64,000 nt of DNA from Conus ventricosus (lineage: Eukaryota > Mollusca > Gastropoda > Neogastropoda > Conidae), in the NCBI GenBank assembly GCA_018398815.1, contig CM031601.1, forward strand, positions 23,710,667 to 23,774,666, read 5' to 3'. This document shows positions 9,006-60,555 of this stretch, piece by piece (the stretch's first letter is position 1; every line of letters starts with the position of its first letter). The translations under genes were made by a program, and so were the position numbers. The notes under the pieces are model-generated. The model was not told the DNA's origin, searched no databases, and was given only the letters and a program-made list of their open reading frames with translations.

Positions 9006-9023
9006 CACACACACACACAAAAC

Positions 9024-9054
<31 letters not shown>

Positions 9055-11080: not shown

Positions 11081-11123
<43 letters not shown>

Positions 11124-20016: not shown

Positions 20017-20018
20017 AA

Positions 20019-20049
<31 letters not shown>

Positions 20050-20762: not shown

Positions 20763-20802
<40 letters not shown>

Positions 20803-22948: not shown

Positions 22949-23948
22949 NNNNNNNNNNNNNNNNNNNNNNNNNNNNNNNNNNNNNNNNNNNNNNNNNNNN
23001 NNNNNNNNNNNNNNNNNNNNNNNNNNNNNNNNNNNNNNNNNNNNNNNNNNNNNNNNNNNNNNNNNNNNNNNNNNNNNNNNNNNNNNNNNNNNNNNNNNNN
23101 NNNNNNNNNNNNNNNNNNNNNNNNNNNNNNNNNNNNNNNNNNNNNNNNNNNNNNNNNNNNNNNNNNNNNNNNNNNNNNNNNNNNNNNNNNNNNNNNNNNN
23201 NNNNNNNNNNNNNNNNNNNNNNNNNNNNNNNNNNNNNNNNNNNNNNNNNNNNNNNNNNNNNNNNNNNNNNNNNNNNNNNNNNNNNNNNNNNNNNNNNNNN
23301 NNNNNNNNNNNNNNNNNNNNNNNNNNNNNNNNNNNNNNNNNNNNNNNNNNNNNNNNNNNNNNNNNNNNNNNNNNNNNNNNNNNNNNNNNNNNNNNNNNNN
23401 NNNNNNNNNNNNNNNNNNNNNNNNNNNNNNNNNNNNNNNNNNNNNNNNNNNNNNNNNNNNNNNNNNNNNNNNNNNNNNNNNNNNNNNNNNNNNNNNNNNN
23501 NNNNNNNNNNNNNNNNNNNNNNNNNNNNNNNNNNNNNNNNNNNNNNNNNNNNNNNNNNNNNNNNNNNNNNNNNNNNNNNNNNNNNNNNNNNNNNNNNNNN
23601 NNNNNNNNNNNNNNNNNNNNNNNNNNNNNNNNNNNNNNNNNNNNNNNNNNNNNNNNNNNNNNNNNNNNNNNNNNNNNNNNNNNNNNNNNNNNNNNNNNNN
23701 NNNNNNNNNNNNNNNNNNNNNNNNNNNNNNNNNNNNNNNNNNNNNNNNNNNNNNNNNNNNNNNNNNNNNNNNNNNNNNNNNNNNNNNNNNNNNNNNNNNN
23801 NNNNNNNNNNNNNNNNNNNNNNNNNNNNNNNNNNNNNNNNNNNNNNNNNNNNNNNNNNNNNNNNNNNNNNNNNNNNNNNNNNNNNNNNNNNNNNNNNNNN
23901 NNNNNNNNNNNNNNNNNNNNNNNNNNNNNNNNNNNNNNNNNNNNNNNN
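22949..23948. other. Scaffold gap of exactly 1,000 N
   Basis: The N run is exactly 1,000 long, the conventional placeholder for an unknown distance. Left of it is sequence matching about 53,670; right of it is sequence matching the end of the Gypsy Pol at about 8.3 kb. The flanks therefore belong to two overlapping copies of one locus and do not adjoin naturally. Protein frames that run across the N are meaningless. Confidence 0.95.
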
Positions 23949-28359: not shown

Positions 28360-28744
28360 ATGTCCGGCGGCAAGAAGGACCACGGCGGCGGGGGGAGGAG
28401 GAGGGGGGGCGGAGGAGGAGGAGGGGTACACGAGACCTGGTGACGGAAGCACGGAGCTTCACCAGCAGCCTGGCCAACGTGTTCCTGCTGAAGAAGCGCG
28501 ACCAGCAGTCCAAGCACCTGCTGGAGAAGGCGCACTTCCTCATCGACGCGCTGGTGGCCGAGAACCTGAAGCAGTCGCCGTCGTCTGGGGGGCGGCCGGC
28601 CCCCGTCACCCCCCGCCAGCAGCGGAGCGCCGGCGGCATGGGCCAGCTGTGGGTGAAGCTGACGAACTGAAGAGGGAGAACGACGACCTCCGCCGTCAGC
28701 GGGGAAGGTCCCAGGATGACAGGTCTTCGTCGCCTAAAGATAAG
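28360..28744 (+). CDS. Mieap/SPATA18-like gene, first identified coding exon
   Basis: An ATG in good context (CACCATGT) at 28,360 opens a Gly/Lys-rich leader (MSGGKKDHGGGG) encoded by G-rich repeat DNA, followed after a frame change in the G run by TRDLVTEARSFTSSLANVFL, LKKRDQQSKHLLEKAH and LVAENLKQ. The exon ends ELKRENDDLRRQRGRS then SPKDK at a GTGAGA donor at 28,745. A second one-base loss lies near 28,668 (ACGAACTG). The helical, charged sequence fits the coiled-coil front half of mitochondria-eating protein, which acts at the mitochondrial outer membrane and in mitochondrial quality control in mammals. Assignment to the family rests mainly on the last exon. Both frame breaks could be base-call errors; the ATG as the real start is a guess. 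Confidence 0.6.
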
Positions 28745-32303: not shown

Positions 32304-32359
<56 letters not shown>

Positions 32360-32381
32360 GTACATTTACGTATATTGATTA

Positions 32382-32463
<82 letters not shown>

Positions 32464-33057
32464 ACATCCATATACATATATGCTTATGCAGTCTCTGTGG
32501 ACCCGATAGGTTCCAGCCATTCGCTTGTGCTGATGAGGAGCAATAACTCCGAAACGCGTGTCCGGGCCAGCGGGGGAAAAAAAAACAACTGGTGCTTGTT
32601 GTGCTTGTCATGAAGACAGCCGGCATCGACCTGCTCAAGGTTCTTCTGCGCTATATTTGGGATCGGGAGGGGGGGGGGGGGGGCTTTGGTACATAAAGAA
32701 GAAGGAAGGAAAGAGACAGGGAACAGACAAAGAGACACAGCTATTTGGAAAAGAGTTGCAAGTAGCTGACACCCCTCCTACCCCCCACCCCCCACCCCTG
32801 GCCTCCCTTCCTAAGCCCTGACCTCTGCCTGTCCAACCAAACAAAACAAAAACCAAATAAAGTGAAGGCTGAAGATCGTGCGTTCCATGTATTTGGCGCC
32901 AGATGATTGCCGATCGTCACTGCACGACGAAATGAGATGCACTGTAATGCATTGTATTGTATTGTATAGTACTGTGTTGTATTGCATTGTATTGTAACGC
33001 GTTGTATTGTAATCCTCCAGAACCTTTATGAGACGCATCCGGGAAAGAAGAGGGCGC
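30060..33057. other. Intron sequence between LINE fragment and Polinton
   Basis: No gene. Contains a GATA/GACA microsatellite (30,150-30,360), poly-G runs (30,727-30,741 and 31,677-31,688), long (CT)n runs (32,311-32,356 and 32,382-32,460), a hammerhead ribozyme core (32,530-32,562), a poly-G run (32,669-32,684) and a TATTG-type repeat (32,945-33,010). The Polinton begins at 33,058. Confidence 0.75.
32521..32570 (+). ncRNA. Hammerhead ribozyme motif (type I-like, minimal stem III)
   Basis: The conserved core is complete: CTGATGA (32,530-32,536), stem II GGAG/CTCC with a six-base loop CAATAA, then GAAAC (32,551-32,555), a GCGT loop closed by two pairs AC/GT, and the cleavage triplet GTC (32,560-32,562). 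Such small-stem-III motifs are known from Penelope-like elements and related retroelements of animals. Stem I is weakly formed: the bases next to the core pair only partly, with a possible outer CGCT/AGCG stem. A corrupted copy is at about 17,394-17,430. No Penelope coding sequence is attached here. Confidence 0.6.
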
Positions 33058-33304
33058 AGAGAACTAATAAATGTTCATTCTAGCTTTTTACTGCCCTCAA
33101 TGAATTTCGGGCAGTAAAAAGCTATAATAAACATTTATTAGTTCTCTGACAAGTAACATTTCAACAATGAATTAAAAATGATAATCCATCACACATTCTC
33201 TTTCAATAACCAAAAATAACGATTTTTTACAAACAAACATACTGTGTAGGATTATCCGTTTTCAATACTAATTTACTAAACTTTTTAGATTCTAGTTTTT
33301 GCTT
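33058..33304 (+). repeat. Left terminal inverted repeat of the Polinton
   Basis: Matches the reverse complement of 49,061-49,307 with only scattered differences. The outer 90 bases are themselves an inverted repeat: arms 33,058-33,096 and 33,109-33,147 pair at 37 of 39 positions around a 12-base loop. The inner part (about 33,225-33,304) is an inverted copy of the last ATPase codons. Confidence 0.9.
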
Positions 33305-34461
33305 TGAAAATCCACACACTTATCCTTGCGTGATAAATTTTATAAAACGAAGTAGATAGACAAGCAGACAAACACTATGCAATGGTGGGGGTGGGTAAGA
33401 CTAGCCGGATCACACCATGTACGACGCAAAGCCTGCTATTATCTATCACTTTACAAGTTCTTACTGTGGGCCCCAGCATTTACCTTTCTCATATTACCAG
33501 TGACAGAGACACACAGTTGGTACTGCACAGACATGGAAATACAGAGGCCTGTCATTAGGCTGAAACCTGATTACTTAATTTTGGCTCGGCAAGGTGCAAC
33601 ACCACGTGACCGGACATGACGATCTAGACCCAACGCCTCTCAGTTTAGCAATAGCATTCAATGCAGGCGGGTGTGTTTGTGTTTACAGAGGAACAGCTTT
33701 TGCCATAGATGAACATATGTTTTATTACAACTGTATGGCGGAGTATTTAAACAAACGAAAATCAAAATTTCAAAATGGAGTGACTGAAGGCGGCGAACGA
33801 AGCAAGATTAGGAATAGAGTTTTTAGAACTTACCGCCAATGACAATGACAAACAAAGCACAAGACAAGACACGATGCATTTCAACCACTTGGGTCTTCAT
33901 CAGGCGAAAAAATAAATCACATTTAACATGTGGGACAGTACAAACTACGAAAAACAAAAACAAAAAAAAAAGGAGAATGAAAAATGACTCATCCGTTAAT
34001 CTCCATGAAGGCGGAAATGACATGAGGCCAGGGGGATTATGGGAGAGGAAACAGAGGGGGGGGGGGGGGGGGGTTGCGTCAGGGGAGGTGTGTGTGTGTG
34101 ATATGATAGGGTTGTGTGTCTAGTTTATTAGGATGGTATGATATCTTTGTGATGGTTGTGGTAATGGTAAAAAAAAAAAAAGAAAAATAAAGAAAAAAAA
34201 AAAAAAAAAAAAAGGGTGTGTGTGTGGGGGGGGGGGATTTAAGGGGAAGGATCAAAACAAAATTAAGATTAGATAGATGGAGGGTTGCTGTAACTACTGT
34301 ATGAAGTGAGTGAAGGGGATGTGGTGGTGGTGTATGTAAGTGTGTGTGTACGTGTGTGTGTTGGTAGGGGATATTGCCAACTGATGTGGAAGAGGTGGGT
34401 ATGTGTGTTTGGTTATTGTTGGATATTGATGCCTTGGGGGTGTAGTGTGCCCAGTTTGGAA
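33305..34461. other. Left arm of the Polinton, unassigned
   Basis: Clean sequence with short open frames only; none was recognised. A hammerhead-like core lies on the minus strand at 33,879-33,903. A poly-G run (34,057-34,072), A-rich tract (34,169-34,213) and GT-rich DNA (34,216-34,360) follow. Gene content may have been lost or interrupted here. Confidence 0.6.
33879..33903 (-). ncRNA. Possible hammerhead-like core in Polinton arm
   Basis: On the minus strand CTGATGA and GAAA are separated by AGACCCAAGTGGTT, where ACC can pair with GGT around a CAAGT loop. The following stem III would need G-U pairs, and stem I was not established. Only the core is suggestive. Confidence 0.3.
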
Positions 34462-34792
34462 ATGAAAAGAAAATCAGGCGTGCCCGGTTCTTTACTTCCT
34501 AAGCTAAAGAGAAGTATTGCTTTTTTGGAAGGTGAGGAGAAAGAAAAACGAGAACCTACTATTGATAAACTACACAAGCGCTTGAAAGCTTGTTGATTCA
34601 AGACAGAGATTTAGCTGATATATTTGAAAGAGATGTTGTTAACTTTGAAAAGCTTTTAACTTTTGAAGAAATGATTCTATTTTAAAAAATGGCGCTGTTT
34701 TATTTAAAAAGCTGGAGTCGCGAAAGGAAACGTTTATTCGCCGCACTCCAAAACCGGCCTTGAAGCCACAGTCCCAGCTTGACACTGGCTGA
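34462..34792 (+). CDS. Hypothetical Polinton protein, left arm (frameshifted)
   Basis: A frame opens at ATG 34,462 with MKRKSGVPGSLLPKLKRSIA and runs to 34,596. Coding character continues in the next frame with LLIQDRDLADIFERDVVNFE and then, after another shift near 34,681, with FKKLESRKETFIRRTPKP to a stop at 34,790-34,792. Taken together this suggests one basic, helical protein of about 110 residues with two one-base breaks. It was not matched to any family. The position next to the left terminus of a Polinton suggests a small accessory or virion gene, but that is only an inference. Confidence 0.4.
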
Positions 34793-37164
34793 CCTATTTG
34801 AGCGCTACAGGCAGTTGCGCGACCTGCTTCAGTGTTTGGACTGTGTGTCGAGACAGTTATGGAAGGCCGGCCAACTATTCGCCAAATGATAGGTCTGTTC
34901 ACACAGCGGGCGCGTACTAACACGTTGAATGCTAGCCAGGCAACGAATCACTACTCAGCGCATGGGACACAACCTGTTCAGTCACAAAGCAAGTGGTCCT
35001 CCAGTTCCACTTTTCTTGGCAGCTCCTTCCACTTTGGGACACTTAAAACCTTCCCCCCAAGCCCCCCCAAAAGTTTAATTTTTTTGGCCCCCAACCCTTA
35101 ATTTCCACCTAAAGCCCTTATTAAATCCCCCCCAAAACCCCTTATTAAACCACCCCAAGCCCTTTAAATTTTTGTTCTTAATTAAGTCACCCCCCAAGTC
35201 CAATCAATTTTTTTGATCAAGTCCCCCCAAAAGGGTTCTTAATTAAGTTCCAAAAGTTTTTTTAAAAAATTTCCCTTAAATTTCAAGTTCTTACTAAAGG
35301 TCCCCTTTAATTTCCTTACCAATTTATCCTCAAGTAAACCCCCAATTTTTTAATTTAAAGTCCCCCCAATTCATAACAAAAGTCATCCTCTAAGTTCTAC
35401 CAAGTTTTATTCAAGTCAACTTATAATTATTTTTTTTAAGTTCTTAAAGTATTTTTTCCATTTTAAAAGGGGATCAAAATGATCTTTTTTTGGTTGGTGG
35501 TTTTGGAAACTTTTTGTTTTGGCTTCTTTTTTTTTAGGGGCAAAAATTGTTTGGACAGTTTTGGGTTTTTTGTTGTTTTTTGTTTTTTATATTTTAAAAA
35601 CCGAAAAACCCGCCCCCACACAATGCCCCCAAAAAAGGGAAAAATGCTTTAAGAAAATTCTGTGGGCCCTTTGGGGGGGTTAGGCCCCCCTGGCTTTTCC
35701 CTGTAGGAAACTTGTTCTGTTTTTTTTTATAGCGGGCATTAAAAACAACGGGTTTGCGGCTCGGGGAAATTTTTAAATTATAACAAATTTTCTTGATTGA
35801 AACCCTTTAAATTTTTTTTGGTTTGTTCCACTCAAAAAATTTTTTCCCCCTGCTGAAAGGCGTCCAGGTTTTTTTCTGATAAATTTCTTACCTAAATTCA
35901 ATGTTTTTGATTCTATTTTTCGCTGATTTTCGGGCTCTGTTTTTTTTTAAGGGAAACAAAACTATTGATTAAAAGAAATTTAACCCCCAGGGATTGGGCA
36001 GGGGAAAATTTAATTTTCCCCAAATCTGAAATTTACAGATCAAAATCTAGAGACTCTAATAAACTTTGTTAAAACTGGAACCGGGCTTTAAAATCATACA
36101 AAAAATTCTTTTTCCAAAATTTTCAGGGGGAACAAATCGGCCAAAGTTTAGTGAAAAAAAACAAAAAACCCGGTTTGCCCGACATTTTTTAACCATTCTT
36201 GATCCTAGTTGGCTTCATACCTTTTGAATACTTTTATAAAGGGTCTTGTGGGGACTTTCTTTTGAATCTTTCAAAACTGAATTCTTTTCCCGGGGAACGT
36301 TTTTTTTTTCCGAATGTGCCAAAAAATTACAACCCCCCTTTTGGGGGCCCAAAACAGCTTGGCACCCAACTTCTTCTTTTGAAAAGTCCAAACTTTTTTA
36401 GGCATTTGTAGCTGATAGATCATCGGTTTTCCATTTTTTAATTACTAAAAAATAATTTTTTTTTTGGTTTTTAAAAAATGAGCGCCAAAAAGGACTGTTG
36501 CCAATTTGTAAAACCATTCTGCTTTTATTGGGGGCCTAAGTGTGGAAAAACACAATCCCGGGTAAAACCCTTTAAAAATTTAAAACCAGCAAAATTTTGG
36601 AAAACTAACTTTGAGGACTCAGCAAAGCTTTTTTGCTGTTTTTAAACAGTTTTCTTTTGTTTCAAAAGATTTTCTATTTTTAAGCAAAAAATAATTCCTG
36701 CCCAGTATCAATAGAAATTTTTAAAAAAAAAACATTTAAAAAAAAATGGCTTCCCCTTTCTTTAATGTTTATAGGCGGGCTGGGGTTAAATTGCGTTTGC
36801 TTTTGGGCGGAAGAAATTACGCAATTAGTAAACGGGGGATGAGGGGGAAAAAAAAAGGGACATAACAAAGCTAGGGGAAAACTACACGCACAAACCCCTA
36901 TAAAAAAGCAAAAAATTGAGCTTTAGATTTTAAAATAAAAAACTGAAAAAAAGGGACATGCAGCTTACACTTTTAAAAAGAGGGTTGATAAAGCAAAAAA
37001 AGAAAAATATTGTAACGGAAAACCCAAATTAAAGGGAAAAATTGCCCCCCCCAAAAATTTCAGCGACTTTTTTTCAACCATCAAAAAACAAAAAAAGCAA
37101 GAAATCGTGTTTATTGTCTTTGGGCATGACCGGGTATTTTTTTTCGCATAATTTTGGGCCTAAA
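34793..37164. other. Polinton interior, unassigned (corrupted from 35,050)
   Basis: Sequence is clean to about 35,045 and then turns into homopolymer-rich corrupted consensus. No protein family could be recognised. AT content is high. One or more genes upstream of the integrase may be hidden here. Confidence 0.5.
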
Positions 37165-38140
37165 ATAAAAATGGACAAAATCTTTATTTCCCAAAAAGGA
37201 TATTGGAAGGGAATCAGGGCCCAATAAAAAACTAACCCCAAGCGCAGGATTTTGTGAACAAACAGCAAAGGAAGGGTTTAACTAAACAAGCGATTTGGGC
37301 AAATTTATTCCCTGCCCTAGCAAATACAGAGCCACATTTTGGGAATACAATGCCGAAGGGGACCCCCTCAAATGGATCTTCTAAAATTTCCCCCAGATAC
37401 ATTGACAAAAAAAGTTTAAGTACGCATTACATAAAGGGGACATAGCTTAAAGATACAAAGATCCAGAACCATTAACAAAAAAGAGGGGTTTCCCTGCGTT
37501 GCTGTCGCTTTTACAACAAAAAACCCAAAACGGGGCCCCAAAACTTACCCCCTCGTTTTTTAAAGCGAGGGATGGAAAAAAATTTTAAAAAGGCCAAGTG
37601 AATCAATTATTTTTTAAAAAAAAAAAACATAGAGTTCCCATTAAAAGAGGCTTCCCGGGTTTTTCCCACAGATAACGGGCTTTAGTTGAAAACTTTAACA
37701 AACATTTACCCTGAAAGATTTTTTTCCCTACCGTACACAGAGACTGATTGAAAAACTCGCAAAAAACAAATGGGTTAGAAGACTGCCCCTTTTGCGCCCC
37801 AAGAATAATGAAAAAAAAAAAAGGGCTAAACCTTTAAAAAAAACCCAAAAAACAAACAAAAATGTTGCTAAGACTCCAGTAAAACCCAGCAAATTTTACC
37901 ATTTGGATTGAAATTTAAGGCCCTTTTTTTTCCCGGGGGGAAAGGCAAAAAAAGGGGACCCTCGCTTCGGGGAAACCAAACCAGTTTGGGGGTTTTGTTC
38001 CAAAAAGAAATAAAAAGAATTGTAAAAGTGAATCCCCCGTTTTTTTTAACGAGAAACTGAAACAACAAAAAAACCCCCCCCCCAAAAAAGATTTTTTTGT
38101 GAAGGAAGAACTGCAGATAATCCTACCAATAAAAGTTCCG
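37165..38140 (+). CDS. Polinton retroviral-type integrase (fragmented)
   Basis: DDE-type integrase that would insert the element. Readable pieces in order on the plus strand: GYWKGIRA (37,200-37,226, N-terminal segment), KQAIW (about 37,285), a piece with MDLLKFPPDT (about 37,374-37,403, the region of the first catalytic Asp), RYKD-EPLT (about 37,450-37,480), a GPKTYPLVF piece, ALVENFNKHLP (about 37,680-37,712; the E is in the place of the catalytic Glu of 'VERFNRTL'), RLIEKLAKNK, then VAKTPVKPSKFYHLD (about 37,864-37,908) and DFFVKEELQIILPIKVPVV near the C-terminus (about 38,090-38,145). The order and spacing fit the rve-type integrase of Polintons. Frames alternate because of corrupted base calls, so activity cannot be judged. 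Confidence 0.8.
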
Positions 38141-38149
38141 GTTGTTTAA

Positions 38150-38650
38150 AAAAAATTTTTAAAATTTTACAAAAAAATATTTAATCTAAAATAAAAAGCT
38201 CAAAACCAAAACAAGAATGAAAATGAAGAGAATTTGGGAAATTAAAAGGGAAATCATATGTTTCCGTGTTCTGCAAAAAAAGGGAAATTTAAAACCCAGA
38301 ATCAACAGGGTTTATTCTGCTTTTAAAAGAAAAAAAATTACGAGGTTTCATGGGCCCACATGGCTCGCATCCAATCCTTACAGCCCAAAAACCCAAATTT
38401 TGCCTATCAAAAAAGGGGAAAAAGAAAAATTTTTGAAATAAAAAAAAAAAAATTCGAGCACGTCAAGAAAACATGAAAAAAAAATTTGAATAAATTTGGA
38501 AAGATGTAGGGAATTAAATTTTCTAAAATAAATTTCGGGAAAAAAATTAATAAAACCCGAATAAAAAAATCTTCGGTAAGAAGATATTAAAAAATTTTTA
38601 ATTGGCCCTTATCCCATGAAAAATTTGCATATAAAAAACTTGGATAAACC
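38150..38650. other. Spacer between integrase and polymerase genes
   Basis: AT-rich, corrupted sequence between the ends of two convergent genes (integrase on +, polymerase on -). No feature is supported. Confidence 0.5.
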
Positions 38651-40720
38651 AAATACTTTCTTTGTTTTTTTTCTATCAAAATGACTTTTTTGTTACAACA
38701 GTTGTTTTTGATCTCATTAGATTAAAACGTATTTTTAACGTTGTCGGGAAAAAAGTATTTTTTATTGAAAAAATTGCTTTTTTTGTAGTTGTCTTTGTGA
38801 TTTGTTTTGATGCCCAACACTCCCGAGATTTTCCCTTTTTTGTTTTTTTGGATGGTTTTCCCTGGCTCAAAAATACTGTACATTTTCGACCTTAAACCCA
38901 AAAAACCCCCCCTTGATCCCCCCCTCCAATAATTCATCCTTACTTTCTAAAACCTTCTTTTAAACCATTTTGGAATGCAAAACAATCTTTAGGTAATCAG
39001 ATGTGCCCGTAAAACCCCCGCATCCCCCTTTAGCTACTTCAAATTCCATTTTCTTTATAGATGTCTTCAGAAAGGGAAATATCAATAACAAAACTGTCTG
39101 TATTGTGTAAATTTACTCGGATTTCCGGGATACGAGGGTTTAAAGAATTCAAAAAAGAAATTCAAACCACCCAAAAGTTTTGATAATTCTAAAACAGAAA
39201 ACCCAAATTTAAATACAGGTTTGCAAATTTTATTTTCTTTTTTTTCATCATTATCCCAAAAAGCTGATCATGAAATCTTCTAAAATCCTGTAATTTTTTT
39301 TTGGGAAGTCAGCTTTTTGGCTTCGTTTCTTTGGGGGCCCAAATTTTGGACATCTTTGCGTTTGTGGGGAAATTTTCCATTGTCTTTCCGAAACAGCTGT
39401 TGTTCATCACCCCTTAAAAAAGGGTTTTTTTCTAAAGCATCTGTGGATTTATTTTTTCCCTAAGATTCATGTTTTTTCCATAAATGTAGGGTTTTCAAAA
39501 CTGTTTCTTGATCAAAAGCAATTCCCCCGTTTAACTGTCTCAATTTAAAAACCTTTTCCCTTTAAAAAAAAATTGGGAAAAGTCTGTAATGACAACAAAA
39601 TTTTTTTTTGCCTCAAAGATTGGGCCAAAATTTTTAGGGGGCTCTTTTGGATTCATTTTTAAAGACTTTCTTGCAGCTAAGGGGTAGCATTTTGTGGGGT
39701 CAGGGAAATTTAAAGAGGTTTATTCAAAGCAATTTCTAGAATGAAACCGCGCTGTCGATCGGACGGTCAATCGCTAAACCCCAATTTAATGCCTTTGCAC
39801 TTTAAATTTGTCCCGCCCCCTTTTTGGTACATTTAAAGTTGCGTAGTGGAAGTGATTGCGCCTTTGCCCATCCATCCCGATTGTTTGCATCAAAAATACA
39901 GGGGAAAGTTAGCCTTTTACGGGATCTTAACGCCCAATTATTTTTTTGTTTTGTTTTTAACAGTAATGATCCACCCATACTTTTCCCTCCCCGCAACCGT
40001 TTTCAATCACCCGGAATCTTTGGAAAATCGGGAAATAAATCCCAATTTTTTACTCCAGTATTTTTTAAAAAAGGTCCCACTCTCGGGGAAAAAAATTTTT
40101 AATGCGCAGGACCCCGGGAAAAAAAAGTTTCATGCGGGTCTTTCTAAAAATTTCAAAATTTTCCCAACAAACATAAAACTGCCACAAGTATAATCATGAA
40201 AAGTCTCCCATCTTTTTTAAAATCAACTTTTGCCACGCATTTTTGGCATGCGGGAAAATGGGAATAAAAAAACCCCCTTTTCTCTAAGACTGAAAAGAAA
40301 TCTTTAGGTGGATGAATCTTCGCAAACCCCCCCCAATGTTCTTTGTCCTCAAAAGGGGTAAACGCCCTTTCTAACAAGAGTTGGGCCCAAAATTTTCCTT
40401 CTGTTTTGGAAAAAGGGACTTTAAGGACATACCCAGGGATTTAAAAACCCCCAATAGGTTGTTGGCATAGAGTCTAAAAAGACATGTTTTTAAAAGGGAA
40501 AACCATGTTTTTTTCTGACGACTGTGCAATGCATAAAAACCTGAAGGCGTATCAAATTCTTTTTTTTTAAAGGGGTGAGAGTCGTAACCCCCAATTTTAT
40601 GAAAGAAGAGGGGCAGCTTCCATTTTTTGGGTTCAAACTTTAGTTGAAGATTCCCAGTTTTTGTGCGCGCTCCTCTGAACTTTCCGCTAATGTGACCCAT
40701 GGTCTTACTTTTGGGTTTGG
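38650..40720 (-). CDS. Protein-primed DNA polymerase B of the Polinton (fragmented)
   Basis: Family B polymerase of the protein-primed type that would replicate the element from its ends. On the minus strand, from high to low coordinates: HISGKFRGA and FFHKIGGYDSH (about 40,685-40,565; treble-clef/exonuclease region, compare 'HxxGKxRGxAH...N...GYDSH'), KEHWGGFAKIHPPKDFF (about 40,345-40,290), DANNRDGWAKAQSLPLRNF (about 39,895-39,840; palm motif A 'DxNxLYG'), MNNSCFGKTMENF (about 39,407-39,369; motif B 'NSxYGK'), NTDSFVIDI (about 39,105-39,079; motif C 'DTDS') and GLRSKMYSIFE (about 38,900-38,865; late 'GLRxKMY' motif). All hallmarks are in the correct order over 2 kb. The N-terminal part probably extends to about 41,150, where a minus-strand frame is open but unrecognised. 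Repeated frame changes are attributed to corrupted consensus. Confidence 0.88.
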
Positions 40721-43700
40721 CCCCTTAAACTGTTAAAATTAGCTTTTAAGCCCCCATATCCAAAAAATGTGTGGCTGATTCATACTGTTTTTTTTGGTTT
40801 CAGGCGCCCAAAAAAATTTTCTAGAGATTCAATTATTAGAACAGGCGTTTACGCACTTGCTGCATGCTTTTCTAAGAATGTTTCGGGCAGCATCTGGCCT
40901 TTTTAAAAAATTTCGGTTCGTTTTACTCCGTCCCCTGCAATAATAAAAGGCAAATGAAAAAAACTGATGTTTAATCTTAAGACTTTTTTCCGGAAATTTT
41001 TCCCGGGGGGGTTTGGGGCCCTTTTTCATAGGGAACAATAAGCGACCCCAAGTCTCGTAATTTACGTTTGGGATTTTGTTTACCCTTTCCCCCAGCTTAA
41101 AACTAATTTTTAGATCCAGGCAGGGCGCAATTAGTTCTGTTTTAACAGTCAAACAAGAATTTTTTTTTTAAAAATGTTTTTATTTTAAAAGGCGCGGCTG
41201 GAACAAATGGGATTCTTTTTAAAAACTTTTTCAAACAAAGTTTGTTTGCCATGTTTTTTGAATATGCTGCATTAGTCTACTCATTTTTCGTATAAAGGGG
41301 GAAATTGGGTTTCCCCCGGCTGATGAAAACTTAGGAGTAAGCCCCTTTGGTTTTTGGGCCGGTTTCACCAAATTTTTGGGCTGCTTAGCCCACTCTAATG
41401 GGGGCCCCAAAATTTTTTTCCCTCACCCCATGTTATCTTTAACATTTAAAGGGTTTTGTTTTTTTCTTCAAAATGATAAATTTTTGCCCACGCTAACGGG
41501 AAAGGATTTTCCCAAACTAAAGTTAAATCATTGATGTAAGAACAATGTTAGACATTTTCTCTGCTTTTTTTTTTTTGCGGATTTAATGCCCCTTGAAAAG
41601 AAACACCAAAAGAAACTTTTTGTCGTCGGTATTTTTTATGTTTAAAAATTTGCTTTTTTTTGGGGGAAAATTCTGGAGGTAGTAAATGTAACCTTTTGGC
41701 CAAACAATCGGTGCATACTTACCCTTTTTTTTAAAATCTGATCTCTGGACTTCGCCCTTGCCCAAACCCAAAGAGCCTCTCATTTTGGCTTCTTAAAGCG
41801 GCCACTAAAACTGTTGTAAGCTTTTGGTCCCCCCAACCGGGTAAAAAAGGGTCATTATGAGAAAAAAAAAACCCTGTTTTTGAGTCGGAAAACCCGACTT
41901 CTAGATTTTCTTCATTTATTGTTTTTATAGTCGATTTAAAAAAGCTAACATTACTTTTTAAATGGGGGGTCTATTGTTAAATTTTCCCGGAAATTTAGAA
42001 AATTGCATTAAAAAAACAACGCTTGCCCCCCGTTGTTGGATCAATTTATTCTAATCAAAATCGTTTAAAGCTTTTGACAAACGCTCTCCCTTAAGCAAAC
42101 CTTCAAAAAATTCGTCTGGTTTCCTTTATTAAAATCTTAGCCATGTTTTAGGTTTTTTTTTCTAATTTTAAACAAATTTAAAAATTTTAAAAATTAAAAA
42201 AAAAAAAATTAAACAGAATCAAAATCAAAGGCTTTTTTTTGCTTGGCTCAAAAACTAAAGTATAAAACGGGCCCCTTTTGGGGTTGTTAATCGACGTTTT
42301 GAACGGTTTTTAAAGTCTCGTTTAAATTTTTTTAAAAAAAATTCCTTTTTTATCTGCTCGGGGTCTGGGTGTTGAGAAAAAATTGCCCTTGCCTTTTTTT
42401 TGAAGATTTTAAACTTTTGTTTTTTTTAAAGTCCACCCAAAACACTTGTAAAAAGACTAAATTCTTCATTCCGGATGTTTGAGTCAACTAGCGCTTTAAA
42501 ATTTTTTGTTTATTTAAAGAGCTAAGTTTTGCTGTTATTAGTTGAAACCATAGCCCGGGTGCCCTTTTTGGGGTTTATTTTTTAATTTTTTGCTTTCAGC
42601 CCAAAAGCCCAAAAGAAAACACAAAGCCGAGAGTTTAAAAACAAAACCCCCTAAAGGTAAAGCGCGGGTGCACCAACACCTGTTGCTAAAAGAGCAACCC
42701 CTTGTCCCCGCTGATAGTGCATTTTTGTTGATGTTTTCCGTATTAACCTATGTAACAGCATTAAAGGCAGCAGAATACCTTCCCCTTTGGTTTTGCTGAA
42801 ATTTTTAAAGGTCCGCTCAAATTTTTGTTGCATTTGTGTAATGTTTGGGTTTAAACTAAAGGTTTTTTATGTCAGGGGGTTTTTACTTCCCCTTTTTTTG
42901 GCGACTCTGGCGCTGTAGGCACTTTTGGGGAAAAAACCGAACAGACATGCTTTTTTTAAAAAAAAAATAATTTTTTATTGTATAAACTTTTAATTTTGTT
43001 ATTTTGGGAAAAATTTAGCGCCATCAAAATATTAAAAACAAAGGGACAATTTAATGGTTTATCACCATCTTTTTCTTTATCAATTTGAAAAGTTTACCCC
43101 CTTTTAAAAGTTTTCTCCCCCCTTCCATGGGAACTGATTATCCTCGTCGATTTTTAGGTCAATTTCCCTTAAAAACCCTATTTTGTTGTTAAAAAAAAAT
43201 CCCTCGAGTCTAACCTGTGAAGGTGTAGATCTTTTTGGGCACAAGGTTTTAAATGTTGGACTTCCCCCACACCCCCCCCCCCCAAAAAAATTTTTTTTTT
43301 TTCGTCAAAAAGAATAAGGGCCCAAGCCCGCAAACGTAGATTTGGTTTTGGAAATACCCCTCAAACGAACCAAATTTTACTTTCGTTATTTTTTGGAAAA
43401 AAAACTTTTCACTTTTCCCCTTTTTAATTTGGGCTTCAAATTTTACACAGCAAAAAAAATACCTTTAAAACGATCTTGCTCCCGGGAAAAAAAACTAAAA
43501 TTCCATTTAAAAAGGGCATTCTTTTCTTTTGGGTATTTGTTTGATTAAACACTCTTTTGTAATATTTTCTAATTTTGAAATGAAATTTTTGCTCAAATCA
43601 GCCTTGCTAAAAATTGGGTTTTCTAACAAAAAAAACCCCAAAAATCTAACAGATGTCCCGAAAATTTCTGTAAATTTGCTTCGGTTTGATGATTTGAAAC

Positions 43701-46700
43701 CCCTTTGTAAACCCTTAAAAGTTTGTTCATATACAAACTGTCCCTTTTTAAAGCCCTTGGGAAAATTGGCGCAGCGCTTTTAAACCCCCTCAAAATCAAA
43801 AGGGAAAAGAAAAGCGATTTTTCCAAAAAGCAAAATTTAAAAGCTACATACTTTTTTCCCTCCTTTTGTATCTGCGGCGCCAAATTTTATTTTTAGGGCT
43901 TCTTCATTTTTGATTCCTTAAACCGCAAGATCAGCCCCCTTTTTCCCGGGTTTGCCATTTAAACAGAATTGGTTTAAAAAAAAGTCTGGATTTGTTAAAA
44001 AAAAAATATTTCTTGCCCCCCAATTTTAAAAAAGAAATTTTTTTAAAAAATTGGCCCCTCCCCCGATTCTGAACAACTGTCCCCCGTTTGGTCTGTTTCT
44101 GATTCGAGTTCTATTTTGAAAAAATTTGGTTTCCAGACCTGGAAAAATCACTTTTATCTGCTCCTAGGTTTGGAAAATTTTAAAATAAGAATTTGATCTG
44201 CCCCAATTTGTAGAGGATTATTTTGGGAAAAGAAATTAAACCCCCTTTTTTTTCCCTTTAAAGCCCAAAAGGGGTCTTTCAATCTTCTATGCGGGGGTTT
44301 AAGAACGAAAAAATAAGCTTGTGACATTTTTTTAAAACAAAAAAAAAAAGTTTTTTTATTTAAAAACCCTGGAGGGGAAATTTAAGGTGAAGAAGATAAA
44401 GATTTTTTGATCCTGGAGACGACATTTAGTGAAATGACTCCTTTGACACCGCTCGCTCAACCCACCTCATTGCGACGTAAAATTTAAAGAAAGTACGGCC
44501 CGATCATTTTTCCAAAGTTTAAAGGGCCAAAAACCTCCCCAACTTAATAGACCCCGATTTTTTAAGGGAAAAGGGGTCATTTGTTTGTGAAAAAGCGGCC
44601 CCGGCCCCAGAACAACCCTTTTTCAGCTTACAAAAAAACGAGACCCATCAAAAATTTTTTAGGCATTAAAAACAATTTGGGCAAAGACTTAGGGTGGAAG
44701 TTTGAAATTTGCCCTTTGCAATTTTTAAACCGAAATTAAGGGGGGAGGTGTTTCTAAACTTCAAACCCCACGCAAGGGGAAACCCCCAAAAGATAAACCA
44801 AATACAAAACATGAACTTCCCAAAAATTTTAATTTAAAAACAGGCAAAATAATAAAAAAAAAAAGAACAGAAACCAGTTCTTCAGAAGAAAAAGTACCCC
44901 CAAAAAAAAATTGATGATTCTTCCCTTTTCCTAGGGGAAAAATTATTGCCCCCTTAAAACGGGTTTAAGAACCATTTGAGGTGAATTAGAAAAAAAATTT
45001 TAGCAAAAAACTGGGTGAACTAGATGAGGGTATAAAAAGAGAAAAAAAAAAACTCGTTGAGGCTGAAGGGCGGCCCCAAATTAAAGGGGTGAAAAATTTA
45101 AAGGGGAAAAAATAACCCCAAAAACTAAAAATTCTCGAAAAACGGAAACCCCTAAGACTAGAAGTGTCCCTCTTCTAACCGAGAACAATTACGAACTCAA
45201 GTGAGCAGAATAAAGAAAACTATCCAAAGAATTTTTAAAATTTTAAAACACAACGGTAAAAGAACGAAAACGAACGTGTTTAGAGGGGCAAGGAGTCACA
45301 TTAGCAAGCGTTAAACCCGGGCCTTTTGGATTTGCAAAAAGTAAACTGGCATGGCTATTACAGGCGGGGGGGTCAAAACCCAGTGCCCCGTCGCCATCGC
45401 CCCCCATCCCGCCTGACAAAACAAAGGGGAAAAAAACGCTTTTTCCCCTCTTTGGGGGGGGTTTTATTTAAAAAAAATTTTGCCCGTAAAAAGCCGGGGA
45501 CGCTTTAAAACCGGGGAAATTAAAGGGGGGGTTGTTTTGCTGGCTTTTTTCTTCTGCCCCAAAGTATTGGCTTTTTTGGCCGGGGGCCTTTTTGGACATT
45601 AGTTCTCTTTAAAAGTTGGGGTTAAATTTTTTGTAAAATAAAGGAGTAATCCAGGCCCGTTAATCCAAAAACAAGTCTTTTTCTTTTCATATTCATGGTC
45701 CTTAAATTTTTTTTTTTTTTTTCAAAGGGCTTTAGGGTTTGGGCCCGGGGATTGGGTGAATTATTCGGGGGGGCATCTTGTTTGTTTTTTGCTTGCAATA
45801 AAAAAATGGCTCAGAATTTTTTTTCGTTTTTTTTTTTGAAAATTTTTTTCAAATTTCCGCCCCAAGGATTTCATTATTGGAGTTTTTAAATTTTTTCCTA
45901 TCGGGGCCTGAGGTCAGAAGGCTCAAAGTATAAACCAGTCCAACACAAATTCCCCCCTTTTGATCTTGGGGTTTTGTAAAACATTTTGGTTCCTTTTTTT
46001 ACTTGAAGGGGGAAAAACAACTGTAAAATTAAAAGGGTCCTCTAAATTTGCTAAAATAAATTTTTTTTGTGCTCAAAGCCCCCCAGGGGGGAAACGTTAT
46101 GTTCCCATCTCGTTTGTGCTTTCGAACCTAGCAAACACCAAAGTAAGGAAAAAAGTCTTTTATTTGTTTTTATTCCCGCTTAGTTAGCGCTAATATAAAT
46201 GTTTTTCCCCTGCGTTTTGGCTCTTGCCTATGGCCCGAGGGGAACAGCTGGCCTGAAAAAAAGATGTGTAAGGGGATTCCAGGCCTTTGTTAAAACTTTC
46301 TGTGCCGCCCCCCAAAAAAAAACGTGCCCAGACCTTGATTAAGATCCAAATTTTGTTAAAAATCTGTCATAGCCTTTAAAATTGAATTTGTTTTTCAGAC
46401 CTTTCCAAAAACCTTTTTAAGCTTTCTGTTGCTTTAAAGGGTTAAACGGTTTTTTCAATTTTTTAAAGGCGCTTGCAGTTCAGTTTAAAATATCTGAAAA
46501 GGGGAATAAAAAAAAAATCTGTACCCCTGACCTTTACCAAAGGTTTAGGGTTATTTAAGTGTCGGGGATACGACACCCCCACACCCAGTTGATGCACAAA
46601 AACCCCCCAAAGTTTAACTGGTTCGATAAAAATTTCTCGGATTACTAAACCCCCACTTTTGGGATGGAGTCGTTTTTAATAGGGGGGTTAAGAAAGGGTT

Positions 46701-48200
46701 TCCAAAAGGGGGAAATAACCTTTTTCTTGAAAGGGGTCAGAAATGAGTACGAAATGTCAAGAGAATAAAAAAGTTATATTTTTAAAAAATTTTGTGGGCC
46801 CAACAGAATTTTTTTGCCCTCAGTAAATTTAAATTTCAATCATTTTTTTTTCGTTTAAAAAAAGGGTTTTTAACAAAAAAACTCCAAAAACTGTCCTTTT
46901 TTTTAGAACATTTCATTTATAAAAAATTGCGGAGCCAAAAGGGTTTCACTTCCCTGAAAAATTTTTTTCAAATTCCCTATGGTTTAAATAAAGTTTAATC
47001 CCCAAAGGGAATAATAAAATTAAAAAATATAATAAAGCAGAAAAATTAGTTAGCCAGTTTTAAAAATACCTGAAGGTTTTTTACGGGTTTTTTCTCCTAA
47101 AAAAGCAAAGAGTAACTTTGACAATTTCTCTCAAACTTAACAATGCCAAATCAAAAAAAAATGTTTACCTTTAAACCTGAAGAAGAAGAAGTGGGGACTA
47201 TTTTGAAAAAGACAAACTAAAAAAGTTAAGGTTTTTTCAACTTTCCCATCGGTCCATTTATAGTTTTTGAAATTGCAGGGAAAAAAAACAAAATTTTGAG
47301 GGAGGAAAAAACCGCTCGAACTTGCTTTAAAAAACATTAAAACCAAAAAATTTATTTGGATGAGCTAAGCACTTTATGGAAAAATTAAAATTTATGGAAG
47401 GGGCCCCCAATGTTTTTTAAAAAAGCTCTTCCCCTCAGGGAAAGCTGCCCTATTTTCGATTAAGAAATTAAAACAATTCCCCAATTTACATTTTAAAAGT
47501 TTTGTTTTTTGGGGGGGGTCGGGGTAAATTAATAAAAAAAATCGCAGACAAAACGGGAAAAAGTGAAATGTGAAAACCCGCAGATTGTTTTGGAAAAAAA
47601 AATAAAAAAATGTACTAAAAAAAGCGCGTGGGCCCCCAAGAACCAGGAGTTACATTACGCCTTGAGGTGTATAACTTAGAATTAAAAGACCTTTTTAACG
47701 TTGCGGACTTTGAACAGAATGGTGAGAAAGGGGCTTTTTAGGGTTTGATACACAAAAAAGGGGGAAAAAAACGCAAAGAAGGTTTGGGGACAACAGAAAA
47801 TTTCCTAAAAAAAGAGCAAAATGCGGGAATGTAAAAAGAAATAAAGCGGCCATTAAAGAAAATAAAATAGTTCGAAAACCCCACAGCAAAAAGGGGACTT
47901 TTGAACCCCAAATTTTTAAGGGGAAAAAAAAAATTTGAATTCAAAAGCCAAATTTCCAAAAATTTTTTTCCGTCAAAAAAATTTTCCCCAAAAGCACTCA
48001 AAACCCGGGCCCCTTTTCATTAAGTCTTATGCCAGAGGACAATAGTCGGAAAAGAGAAAGAAATAAAAGCCGTATGGGAAAAAACAAATTAAAATCCTCC
48101 CCAGAAAAGAAACGGTTTTAAAAAGGGAAGGGTTCCCACAAAAATTTCAGTTCATTTTCCCCGCAGGAAAAATTAAAAGAACACGTTCACAAAAGAAAAT
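40721..48200. other. Polinton interior, unassigned (corrupted)
   Basis: Seven kilobases in which the capsid proteins, protease and the polymerase N-terminus would be expected. The minus strand has a frame at 40,829-41,152 directly upstream of the polymerase domain. A plus-strand piece EVYNLELKDLFNVADFEQ (about 47,661-47,715) looks coding and precedes the clean gene at 48.24 kb. A Lys/Glu-rich coiled-coil-like stretch is seen at about 45,000-45,120 (+). None could be assigned to a family. Confidence 0.45.
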
Positions 48201-48235
48201 TGAAATTTTTTGGGCTTAAAAAAAGGGGGAGGGAT

Positions 48236-48511
48236 GGGGTTGTGGGCGTTAGTGACGTCCTTATAAAAGGAATTAATATTAGCTGGCAAAACTTAGACGT
48301 TAAACGTCTTAAAGTTACCATCGTCGTTGTTCACAATGGTGAGGATATTAAGGTCATAACAACAAGCAACAAAATCAATATTGACTTAAATAGGAACAAT
48401 CTTACAGAACTAAATTGGATTAATCTTACACATTTAGGCCTTATGGGGTTTTATTATACTGAACAAGTTTTGACAGAGAGTATGATAAATATAATAACTG
48501 GATTAAATTAA
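48236..48511 (+). CDS. Hypothetical Polinton protein upstream of the ATPase (3' part)
   Basis: The readable C-terminal 90 residues contain GINISWQNLDVKRLKVTI, VVVHNGEDIKVITTSNK, LNWINLTHLGLMGFYYTEQV and end in TGLN at a TAA (48,509-48,511). The N-terminus lies in corrupted sequence. Its alternating beta-like pattern and position 17 bp before the ATPase start fit a virion structural gene, but I do not recognise the family. The tight spacing suggests the two genes are expressed together or compactly arranged, as usual in Polintons. Confidence 0.6.
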   Translation, partial: GVVGVSDVLIKGINISWQNLDVKRLKVTIVVVHNGEDIKVITTSNKINIDLNRNNLTELNWINLTHLGLMGFYYTEQVLTESMINIITGLN

Positions 48512-48528
48512 ATTCTGTTATAAAAACC

Positions 48529-49139
48529 ATGGAGCAGTTAAACTTTATGACAAAAGAGCCTCATTGTTCATTAATTGTGGGCAAACTGGTTGCGGAAAAA
48601 CAATATTTGTCCTAGACCTATTACAAACAGTTTATCGCTATAATTTTGATTATATTGTGATTTTCTGTCCAACGCTTGAATTTAACAAAGCATATCATGA
48701 TAGAAGGTTTATATGGGCAGATGATGACGTATATTTAGCTGATCCTAGCAATAAACTGAGTGAGTGTTTAGAATACTTTTATAGACTGTTTAAAGGAACG
48801 CAGACACTATTTATTATAGATGACTGTTCAGCAGAAAGAGACATAGTTAAAAAGAGAAACACTTTGTCAAAACTAGCCTTCAGTGGAAGACATGCTGGAA
48901 TAAGTGTGTGGATTTTATGTCAAAAATATAACTCAGTTTTAAAAGACTTTAGAGAACAGTTAAAGACTGTAGTTTTATTTCACATGAAAGACAGAGACGC
49001 ATTTGATGAATGTATGCGCGAAAATGATGTTATTGAAAATGATCAGGAAAAACATAGGATTAAGCAAAAACTAAAATCTGAAAAGTTTAGTAAATTAGTA
49101 TTGAAAACGGATAATCCTACACAGTATGTTTGTTTGTAA
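48529..49139 (+). CDS. A32-like (FtsK-HerA) DNA-packaging ATPase of the Polinton
   Basis: P-loop ATPase that in related viruses and Polintons drives genome packaging into capsids. Walker A GQTGCGKT (about 48,579-48,602), Walker B LFIIDD (about 48,806-48,824), and FSGRHAGISVWILCQKYN (about 48,877-48,930), the family motif with polar sensor residue Q. The end is TDNPTQYVCL. About 200 residues is short but complete for the family. A well-placed ATG lies at 48,529 (AAAACCATGG), but its frame differs by one base from the Walker A frame; the break is in or near the GGG at 48,579-48,581, a short G run, so it may be a base-call error or a real mutation. The last 25 or so codons lie inside the right terminal inverted repeat. 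Confidence 0.9.
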
Positions 49140-49307
49140 AAAATCGTTATTTTTTTGTTTATTGAAAAAATGTGTGATGGATTATCATTTTTAATTCGTT
49201 GTTGAAGTGTTACTTGTCAGAGAACTAATAAATGTTTATTATAGCTTTTTACTGCCCGAAATTTATTGAGGCAGTAAAAAGCTAGAATGAACATTTATTA
49301 GTTCTCT
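49061..49307 (-). repeat. Right terminal inverted repeat of the Polinton
   Basis: Reverse complement of 33,058-33,304. The outer 89 bases (49,219-49,307) form a hairpin like that of the left end. The inner third is coding sequence of the ATPase, whose stop codon is at 49,137-49,139. Confidence 0.9.
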
Positions 49308-49367
49308 GGCGCGTTTGTATACTTGTGTGCATGCGCGTAAGAATCAGTGAGTGAGTGTGTGTGTGTG

Positions 49368-49416
<49 letters not shown>

Positions 49417-50110: not shown

Positions 50111-50173
<63 letters not shown>

Positions 50174-50408: not shown

Positions 50409-50665
50409 GGTCCGGGCGAGGTCATCATCAACGACCTGCACAAGACCAAGACGGACAACGAGAGCCTGAAGACGCAGGTCATCCAGCTGCAGAAGGCCCT
50501 GCGCGAGCAGCAGGCGGTGAACAGCAGCGCGCAGGACGAGTACCGGCGCTCCAAGGCAGCGCTGGAGGCCGCCCAACGGTCCGTGGAGAAGGCGCGCCAC
50601 GACTACCGCAAGTTGGAAGGCACCATGGCCGCCCTCAAGGCCGAGAACGAGGCGCTGAAGCTGAA
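50409..50665 (+). CDS. Mieap/SPATA18-like gene, coiled-coil exon
   Basis: An open exon of 257 bp between AG (50,407-50,408) and GTGAGT (50,666). It begins GPGEVIINDLHKTKTDNES and continues with heptad-like QLQKALREQQAVNSS, RRSKAALEAAQRSVEK and AALKAENEALKLK: a parallel coiled coil suited for oligomerisation. In mammalian Mieap a coiled coil precedes the C-terminal lipid-interacting domain. It ends with two bases of a codon that the following exon completes (AA+A, Lys). A damaged second copy is at 21,048-21,303. High GC and codon use contrast with the AT-rich surroundings, as expected for a real exon. Confidence 0.8.
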
Positions 50666-55537: not shown

Positions 55538-55768
55538 ACTGACCATCGCCAACACTCCGGCGAAATCCAACATGGCGCCGCCGGTACCCAGGGCCGACAA
55601 CCGCTTGACGGAGAACATCAGCGAGCGTTGTCGCCCTTCCACCATCGCTCTGCGCTACAACAACCTGGAGAGCCAGCAGTGGGTGGACGCCAAGGAGGCG
55701 GTGGAGGACGATCCGGAGAATCACCTGGAGGAGGCTCAGATCGTGGGACTGCTGTGCCAGGGCTCATG
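55538..55768 (+). CDS. Mieap/SPATA18-like gene, exon with start of C-terminal domain
   Basis: After a CACACAG acceptor the frame, completing the Lys codon of the previous exon, reads LTIANTPAKSNMAPPVPRAD, then SERCRPSTIALRYNNLE, WVDAKEAVEDDPENHLEEAQ and IVGLLCQG before a GTGAGT donor at 55,769. The 'RPS-x-hydrophobic-x-x-x-Y...W-x-DA' pattern is like the beginning of the mitochondria-eating protein C-terminal domain. One G seems to be missing near the end (CCAGGGCTC here, CCAGGGGCTC in the duplicate that follows). The 3' part of the exon is duplicated downstream. Confidence 0.7.
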
Positions 55769-60260: not shown

Positions 60261-60555
60261 ATGGCCCAGGAGCACCAAGACCCGGACGCCAGACAGGCCC
60301 TGCAGACCCTGTCCTCCGCCAACAAGGCCGTGCTCAACTACCTGCACGAGTGCGCCGCCACCACCTGGCAAATGGCCGTGCAGGTCCCGCCCATGAGGCT
60401 GGTGGCCGACGACCCACTTTCGATGACGTCAGGCACAAGTTGTGGTGGTCATGTGACCAGTCGCGCGCCAGAAACGTGGACCTCTTCGGTGGCCCGCGCT
60501 CTTCGATTACGAAGGCGGGAACGTGCTGGTGAAAGGGGGTGTCTGTGCGAGCTAG
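60261..60555 (+). CDS. Mieap/SPATA18-like gene, last coding exon
   Basis: After GCCAG the frame reads MAQEHQDPDARQALQTLSSA, NKAVLNYLHECAATTWQMAV and QVPPMRLVADDP, then in a shifted frame TFDDVRHKLWWSCDQSRARN and VDLF, then after another shift WPALFDYEGGNVLVKGG and a stop at 60,553-60,555. The combination of a Cys/Trp helix followed by 'Q-x-PP-x-x-hydrophobic' and a closing 'WPAL...xxVKG' is what I know from the C-terminal domain of mitochondria-eating protein (Mieap/SPATA18), a protein of mitochondrial quality control. The two one-base breaks (near 60,411 and 60,492) lie in C or G runs, so may be base-call errors. If real, the gene is broken here. Confidence 0.7.

What the first reader, a model, noticed from the sequence alone, without database searches (positions are those of the whole stretch)
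33058..49307. A Polinton/Maverick inside an intron, recognisable through a corrupted interior
Seen: matching 247-bp terminal inverted repeats, GGCGC on both flanks, integrase pieces (ALVENFNKHLP), protein-primed polymerase motifs (GYDSH, MNNSCFGKTMEN, NTDSF, GLRSKMY) and an ATPase with GQTGCGKT and LFIIDD. Known: this set defines Polintons. An annotation pipeline would probably report only the ATPase, since the other genes are shredded by homopolymer errors.
Basis: partly seen in the sequence, partly recalled or inferred. Interest (0 to 1): 0.9.

Follow-up and report, generated by a model that had tools for sequence, protein, structure and literature searches.

The report
Polinton transposon in smeared genome assembly
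This is an ordinary virus-like giant transposon (a Polinton) that appears to sit in an intron of an animal gene; its interior looks shredded because the assembly is locally bad, and the same scaffold also carries a second version of the locus without the transposon.

Summary
The finding holds: a Polinton/Maverick lies at 33,058-49,307. Its roughly 247-bp terminal repeats are 95% identical, with GGCGC on both flanks. It carries an A32-type packaging ATPase and, in frame-broken pieces, a protein-primed DNA polymerase: 220 of 223 tblastn matches of polymerase relatives fall at 38.5-41.0 kb minus, none on the reversed window. The integrase rests on a short string only; capsid and protease genes were neither found nor excluded.

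Added: (1) The shredding is an assembly fault, also present at about 3.8-18.3 kb, where a clean copy of the same DNA lets it be measured: 97% of mismatches copy a neighbouring base. Intact or dead cannot be read from this sequence. (2) The scaffold holds two copies of the locus, probably two alleles, either side of an N gap; one lacks the Polinton. (3) The host gene is a MIEAP homologue.

Somewhat unusual: each end is a 91-92 bp near-perfect palindrome, and the ATPase gene runs into the repeat. New member of a known kind; low interest.

The parts
33053..33057 (.). left target-site duplication GGCGC (5 bp exact; read as 6 bp it has one mismatch)
   Evidence: sequence read
33058..33304 (+). left terminal inverted repeat
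   Evidence: 95.2% to the right repeat
33057..33148 (.). terminal near-perfect palindrome of the left end (hairpin-capable)
   Evidence: 45-bp arms, 91%; -34.2 kcal/mol, z -15.6, 0 of 200 shuffles
33230..33304 (-). copy of the last 25 ATPase codons inside the left repeat
   Evidence: tblastn of ATPase relatives, residues 179-203 of P0002 and others
34990..48245 (.). smeared (corrupted) stretch of assembly inside the element; edges approximate
37679..37711 (+). ALVENFNKHLP string proposed as integrase; not supported by a profile
   Evidence: string; no rve hit in six frames
38752..40694 (-). [quoted passage not shown]
   Evidence: linked matches, best E 1.2e-13; 0 on reversed window; for the relatives
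48122..48511 (+). open frame upstream of the ATPase, partly in the smeared stretch; identity unknown
   Evidence: no Pfam hit; fold of its clean part too poor to use
48507..49139 (+). A32-type packaging ATPase; homology 48,576-49,136; N-terminal residues lie in another frame; last 25 codons inside the right repeat
49062..49307 (-). right terminal inverted repeat
49218..49308 (.). terminal near-perfect palindrome of the right end
   Evidence: 39-bp arms, 95%; -35.7 kcal/mol, z -16.5, 0 of 200 shuffles
49308..49312 (.). right target-site duplication GGCGC
   Evidence: sequence read
8338..17914 (+). smeared second copy of the left flank (equivalent of 24,000-33,027), no element
17950..20018 (+). 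stretch of copy 1 between the two flanks, in place of the Polinton: GT-rich, then a reverse transcriptase in two overlapping frames (18,259-18,918 and 18,843-20,018); left bound approximate
   Evidence: (RVT_1 E 1.5e-17 and 2.1e-16)
20019..22947 (+). second copy of the right flank (equivalents 49,362-51,655 and 52,977-53,677), ends one base before the N gap
22949..23948 (.). 1,000-N scaffold gap between the two copies
28430..28744 (+). probable upstream host exon followed by GTGAGA; one frame break; no profile hit; start approximate
   Evidence: inference from reading frames
50409..50665 (+). host coiled-coil exon, 1.1 kb right of the element
55551..55766 (+). host exon, start of the MIEAP domain; bounds approximate
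   Evidence: joined with the next exon: PF16026 E 4.4e-8, 33.8 bits, cut-off 27
60261..60401 (+). host exon, later part of the MIEAP domain; bounds approximate

Best explanation
A Polinton/Maverick of 16.25 kb inserted into an intron of a MIEAP-homologue gene of an animal; the host species could not be identified. Shown: paired terminal repeats, a flanking GGCGC duplication, a packaging ATPase and a protein-primed DNA polymerase inside, and a second copy of the locus without the element. Inferred from knowledge of the family: the polymerase copies a linear form from its ends using a protein primer, an integrase inserts it with a short target duplication, and the ATPase packages it into capsids. 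The two copies of the locus are probably the two alleles of one heterozygous animal, left unmerged by the assembler. The interior looks broken mainly because the consensus there is bad: runs of bases are lost and neighbours lengthened. Whether the real element is intact cannot be told.
For: TIRs 95.2% over 250 columns; GGCGC on both sides; Pox_A32 E 1.8e-14 and 690 of 712 candidate relatives at E<=1e-3, hits 2 to 13 by E-value being 70-78% identical; polymerase matches 220 of 223 in one place and strand, 0 on the reversed window. Left flank 24,000-33,027 and right flank 49,362-51,655 lie 2.1 kb apart in copy 1. Copy 1's match ends at 22,947, one base before the N gap, and copy 2's match begins at 24,000, 51 bases after it, as expected of two unmerged overlapping contigs. 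Copy 1 also holds the exact pre-insertion site of a mariner that copy 2 carries. Smearing: 821 of 847 mismatches copy a neighbour, against 24 of 44 between two clean stretches; of 5,052 single-base runs 25% are lost, and 1,498 runs exist only in the clean copy against 14 only in the smeared one.
Against: No integrase, capsid or protease profile hit in the smeared interior, though the polymerase escaped the same searches, so this says little. The clean 33.3-35.0 kb of the element also gave no Pfam hit in six frames, so 1.7 kb of readable element carries no gene that I could name. The target duplication is 5 bp exact, where intact vertebrate Mavericks have 6 (PMC8097293, passages). Polymerase and ATPase diverge and lie 7.8 kb apart, unlike the vertebrate layout. 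The exact empty site in copy 1 is unreadable: its continuation fits the right flank (score 162) better than the TIR (134), but 374 of 500 dimer-shuffled right flanks and 25 of 500 random clean stretches reach 162. The first 51 bases of copy 2 cannot be placed on copy 1 (84 of 1,000 random stretches do as well).
Confidence: 0.93

Rival explanations
1. The two copies are a true tandem segmental duplication, and the element inserted into one of them, rather than two alleles.
For: The right-flank copies differ by 44 mismatches and 85 gap columns in 2,318, and the loci by three mobile-element insertions, which a duplication would also give.
Against: Both overlaps end at or near the N gap: copy 1 at 22,947, copy 2 from 24,000 with the gap ending at 23,948. 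A real duplication would not be expected to end at a scaffold gap on both sides.
Confidence: 0.13
2. The element is a true fossil: the interior is broken in the genome, not only in the assembly.
For: The ATPase, in a clean stretch, has its N-terminal residues in another frame; the two TIRs differ at 7 positions in 250 columns, about as much as the two copies of the right flank differ in aligned bases (44 of about 2,230).
Against: The broken look matches the smearing measured in flanking host DNA, so it is no evidence of decay by itself. Copy 1, outside the smeared blocks, shows three one-base gaps against copy 2 in about 200 columns around a host exon, so the ATPase break may be a residual error too.
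Confidence: 0.3
3. The element is a chimaera made by the assembler: ends of one Polinton copy around the interior of another.
For: Smeared and clean stretches meet inside the element at about 34,990 and 48,245, which look like fill-in or joining points.
Against: The outer flanks belong to one locus, the TIRs match, and the size is normal for the family. The interior could still come partly from another copy.
Confidence: 0.12
4. It is another protein-primed element with an A32 ATPase (polinton-like virus, virophage) rather than a Polinton proper.
For: Integrase and capsid type were not shown.
Against: Among the 120 listed polymerase relatives the few named ones are sea slugs (Elysia), a ribbon worm (Tubulanus), the L001 archaeal bin and bins of Thiodiazotropha, a bivalve symbiont; these are relatives of L001's polymerase, the query, and also match the window. 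TIR size, element size and the AG...CT ends fit Mavericks.
Confidence: 0.04

Closest known systems
Polinton/Maverick transposons of animals
   Same: 16.25 kb (intact vertebrate elements 12.7-24.6 kb), TIR about 247 bp (46-1,447), protein-primed PolB, A32-type ATPase, termini AGAG...CTCT close to the (AG)3//(CT)3 end motif (PMC8097293, passages)
   Different: 5-bp exact instead of 6-bp duplication; two AG units at the end, not three; polymerase and ATPase on opposite strands pointing apart, ATPase at the far right end and running into the TIR; 91-92 bp palindromic termini
L001, a 4.6-kb contig in a Diapherotrites archaeon bin (JAADDH010000017.1), by content a Polinton fragment
   Same: an ATPase piece (47.7% over 44 residues) and a polymerase C-terminal piece (52% over 23 residues) match the window
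   Different: polymerase and ATPase converge there; no inverted repeat of 25 bp or more on the contig

Membership tests
[quoted passage not shown]
   220 of 223 tblastn matches at 38.5-41.0 kb minus, best E 1.2e-13, 0 on the reversed window; Pfam scans of pieces and frames gave nothing
Polinton/Maverick | packaging ATPase (A32 type) | tested here: met
Polinton/Maverick | retroviral-like (rve) integrase | tested here: inconclusive
   string ALVENFNKHLP present; no rve hit in six frames of 35.0-38.6 kb or in three neighbouring pieces, none of them the one with the string; the method also missed the polymerase, so it lacks power here
Polinton/Maverick | terminal inverted repeats at both ends of a 15-25 kb element | tested here: met
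Polinton/Maverick | 6-bp target-site duplication | tested here: inconclusive
   5 bp exact (GGCGC); a 6-bp reading has one mismatch either way; the empty allele is smeared at this point
Polinton/Maverick | major and minor capsid proteins | tested here: inconclusive
   no hit in six-frame Pfam scans of 33.3-48.5 kb, mostly smeared sequence; no capsid references were in hand
Polinton/Maverick | adenovirus-like cysteine protease | tested here: inconclusive
   no such hit; same lack of power
Parvovirus-like hairpin termini (considered for the palindromes) | both orientations (flip and flop) of the terminal palindrome | tested here: inconclusive
   only one element seen; its two ends carry the same orientation: outer 39 bp identical between ends, outer and inner arms differ at the same places in both

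The most novel reading that the evidence does not exclude
A Polinton lineage whose termini are long palindromes (91-92 bp, near-perfect, same orientation at both ends) inside the TIR, with the ATPase gene running into the repeat. If conserved in relatives, the hairpin-capable ends could be part of how the element starts replication or presents its ends to the integrase, a terminus design that no title or abstract start in the two search listings made for it describes.
Probability: 0.18. Interest if true: 0.45.

Novelty: new member of a known kind. Interest (0 to 1): 0.22.

Why it matters
It shows a large virus-like element apparently present on one allele and absent from the other, in an intron of a MIEAP homologue, so it would be segregating in the population. 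It also gives a practical warning: here a clean copy of the same DNA proves that the 'shredded' look is a consensus fault, so calling the element a pseudogene or fossil on this sequence would be unfounded. If the palindromic ends recur in relatives, they bear on how Polintons start copying themselves.

Tried and rejected
Integrase by profile: three nearby pieces and six frames of 35.0-38.6 kb, nothing. I also looked by eye for DDE spacing around the stretch with the string; no clear pattern, left open.

Protein search with a 117-residue polymerase piece: 3 candidates, none scored E<=1.

Polinton contigs in the viral collection: one protein scan, one alignment scan and two motif patterns, nothing usable. 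Phage records: no match. The genome-contig scan gave one contig, L001; its polymerase frame has no Pfam hit itself, but opened the way to relatives.

Identity of the frame 48,122-48,511: no Pfam hit; single-sequence fold of its clean 87 residues, mean pLDDT 43, so no fold search was made. The clean 33.3-35.0 kb: no Pfam hit in six frames.

Exact empty site in copy 1: low-complexity GT sequence leaves the test undecided. Placing the first 51 bases after the N gap on copy 1: not above chance (84 of 1,000).

Literature for palindromic Polinton ends: two searches ('polinton' with hairpin, palindrom, terminal inverted repeat; 'polinton' with 'palindromic'), judged from the listings only (15 of 137 and 20 of 41 papers listed). 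Most subscription papers are not in that library, so this is weak.

The window's own assembly was asked 12 times through the genome search and never answered, so copy number in the genome is unknown; the host species was not identified by any search.

Rejected: smearing as biology, since it also affects flanking host DNA and almost every error copies a neighbour. The first smear script stopped with an error at the N gap; the count was redone.
Full report
What is there. GGCGC stands on both sides (33,053-33,057 and 49,308-49,312). The element proper is 33,058-49,307, 16.25 kb, and begins AGAGAAC and ends GTTCTCT.

ATPase. The frame 48,507-49,139 (plus) matches Pfam Pox_A32 (E 1.8e-14, 54.3 bits, cut-off 22.8). 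The protein search gave 690 proteins at E<=1e-3 of 712 candidates, 120 listed. The first is a 368-residue protein with an internal repeat, 53% identical; hits 2 to 13 are 70-78% identical. The nearest relatives align only from their residue 17 (48,576-49,136, 77.5% over 187), so the N-terminal residues are in another frame. The last 25 codons lie inside the right repeat; their copy sits in the left repeat at 33,230-33,304 minus (of 156 matches 131 are at the ATPase and 25 at this copy, 0 on the reversed window).

Polymerase. Ten short pieces gave no DNA_pol_B_2 hit, nor did six frames of 38.6-42.2 kb. Relatives were reached by a detour: the ATPase alignment (A1, 32 rows) found one contig, L001, a 4.6-kb piece in an archaeal bin. 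Its 358-residue frame has no Pfam hit itself, but 2,811 relatives at E<=1e-3 among 7,994 scored candidates, 120 listed, many with PF03175. The few named ones are Elysia (sea slug), Tubulanus (ribbon worm), the L001 bin and bins of Thiodiazotropha, a bivalve symbiont. All 120 were used as tblastn queries against the window, with composition correction and low-complexity filter off. Of 223 matches at E<=0.01, 220 lie at 38.5-41.0 kb on the minus strand; the other 3 lie near 32.4 and 51.0 kb, and those of them printed are low-complexity. The reversed window gave 0. The matches run in order through HIxGKxRGA...GYDSH (40,694-40,575), a DANN site (near 39.9 kb), MNNSxFGKTMEN (near 39.4 kb), a TDTDS-like site (near 39.1 kb) and GLRxKMYSI (38.9 kb). 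That these are polymerase motifs is general knowledge; that order and strand fit is shown.

Integrase and other genes. The string ALVENFNKHLP is at 37,679-37,711 plus, but no profile supports it. Six-frame Pfam scans of the rest of the interior found nothing credible (the only hit, HDV_ag E 0.58, is noise), and the clean 33.3-35.0 kb gave nothing. The scans of smeared sequence also missed the polymerase, so absence there means little.

The corruption. In 500-base bins, adjacent-equal bases are 1.44-2.14 times expectation in all 29 bins of 4.0-18.5 kb and 1.45-1.92 times in all 27 bins of 35.0-48.5 kb, against 0.55-1.41 in the 70 other bins that could be scored. The first block is at least mostly host flank, so the fault is not a property of the element. 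It can be measured, because 8,338-17,914 is a smeared copy of the clean 24,000-33,027. Of 847 mismatches 821 (97%) equal a neighbouring base in the smeared copy, against 24 of 44 (55%) in a clean-to-clean comparison. With runs collapsed to one base, 1,498 runs are missing from the smeared copy and only 14 are new, with 16 mismatches, in 6,588 columns; 25% of the 5,052 single-base runs are lost. So the fault drops short runs and lengthens their neighbours. Reading frames cannot survive this, and 'shredded genes' is no evidence of decay. What caused it is not known; filling of gaps from few noisy reads is my guess.

Two copies of the locus. Besides the left-flank copy, 20,019-22,275 matches 49,362-51,655 at 94.3% and 22,273-22,947 matches 52,977-53,677 at 93.3%. 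Copy 1's match stops one base before the 1,000-N gap (22,949-23,948), and copy 2's begins at 24,000; the 51 bases in between cannot be placed on copy 1 (84 of 1,000 random stretches do as well). This is how two overlapping contigs of two alleles look when a scaffolder puts them side by side. Copy 1 lacks the Polinton; between the flanks it has about 2.1 kb with a reverse transcriptase in two overlapping frames (RVT_1 E 1.5e-17 and 2.1e-16), by its lack of other parts a LINE. Copy 2 has a mariner at 51,656-52,977 (Transposase_1 E 1.8e-9) where copy 1 shows the exact pre-insertion TA site. In the right flank the copies differ at 44 aligned bases and 85 gap columns of 2,318. The two TIRs differ at 7 positions in 250 columns, so the insertion is not obviously younger than the split of the two copies. 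The exact empty site for the Polinton cannot be read: continuation into the right flank scores 162, into the TIR 134, but 374 of 500 dimer-shuffled right flanks and 25 of 500 random clean stretches reach 162.

Host gene. Two downstream exons joined match MIEAP (PF16026, E 4.4e-8, 33.8 bits, cut-off 27); singly they are below cut-off (16.9 and 18.0 bits). A coiled-coil exon lies at 50,409-50,665 and a probable upstream exon at about 28,430-28,744, followed by GTGAGA; the latter has one frame break and no profile hit. The element is thus in an intron of a MIEAP (SPATA18) homologue, the upstream side resting on reading frames alone.

Ends. The outermost 91-92 bp of each repeat form a near-perfect palindrome (arms 91% over 45 and 95% over 39) that as single-stranded DNA folds to -34.2 and -35.7 kcal/mol, z -15.6 and -16.5, 0 of 200 shuffles each. 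The outer 39 bp are identical between the two ends, while outer and inner arms differ at the same sites in both, so in this one copy the two ends have the same orientation.

Comparison. In 134 intact vertebrate Mavericks size is 12.7-24.6 kb, TIRs 46-1,447 bp, TSD 6 bp, end motifs such as (AG)3//(CT)3, and polymerase and ATPase share one module (PMC8097293, passages). Polintons typically measure 15-25 kb and carry PolB, a DDE integrase, protease and ATPase (PMC6431247, passages). This element fits in size, repeats, polymerase, ATPase and nearly in its ends. It differs in the 5-bp exact duplication, the divergent placement of polymerase and ATPase, the ATPase running into the repeat, and the terminal palindromes.

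Verdict. A Polinton, probably heterozygous, in a badly resolved stretch of an animal assembly. Membership is well supported although integrase, capsid and protease genes remain unshown. New member of a known kind.

Noticed in passing
8338-17914 and 24000-33027; 20019-22947 and 49362-53677: The scaffold holds two overlapping copies of the same locus on either side of a 1,000-N gap, most likely unmerged alleles; gene and repeat counts from this assembly may be inflated.
   Followed up: yes
3800-18300: A second smeared stretch, at least mostly host flank, with the same error pattern as the element's interior.
   Followed up: yes
51656-52977: Mariner-type transposon with a 372-residue open transposase frame, CGAGGGTTGTTCAATTTAAGATG ends and TA duplication; absent from copy 1, which shows the exact pre-insertion site.
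   Followed up: partly
18259-20018: Reverse transcriptase in two overlapping frames (RVT_1) in copy 1 only, close to the point where the other copy carries the Polinton.
   Followed up: partly
53995-54945: Minisatellite of about 52-bp units (self-matches at steps of about 52 bp), between two exons of the host gene.
   Followed up: no
55678-55778 and 55800-55902: Part of a MIEAP exon is duplicated in tandem at 97% identity.
   Followed up: no
29225-30079: RNase H domain on the minus strand (PF00075 E 9.5e-8), probably a fragment of a retroelement.
   Followed up: no
L001 1-4602: A contig binned as a Diapherotrites archaeon carries Polinton-like ATPase and polymerase pieces, so it is probably eukaryotic DNA misplaced in that genome bin.
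   Followed up: partly
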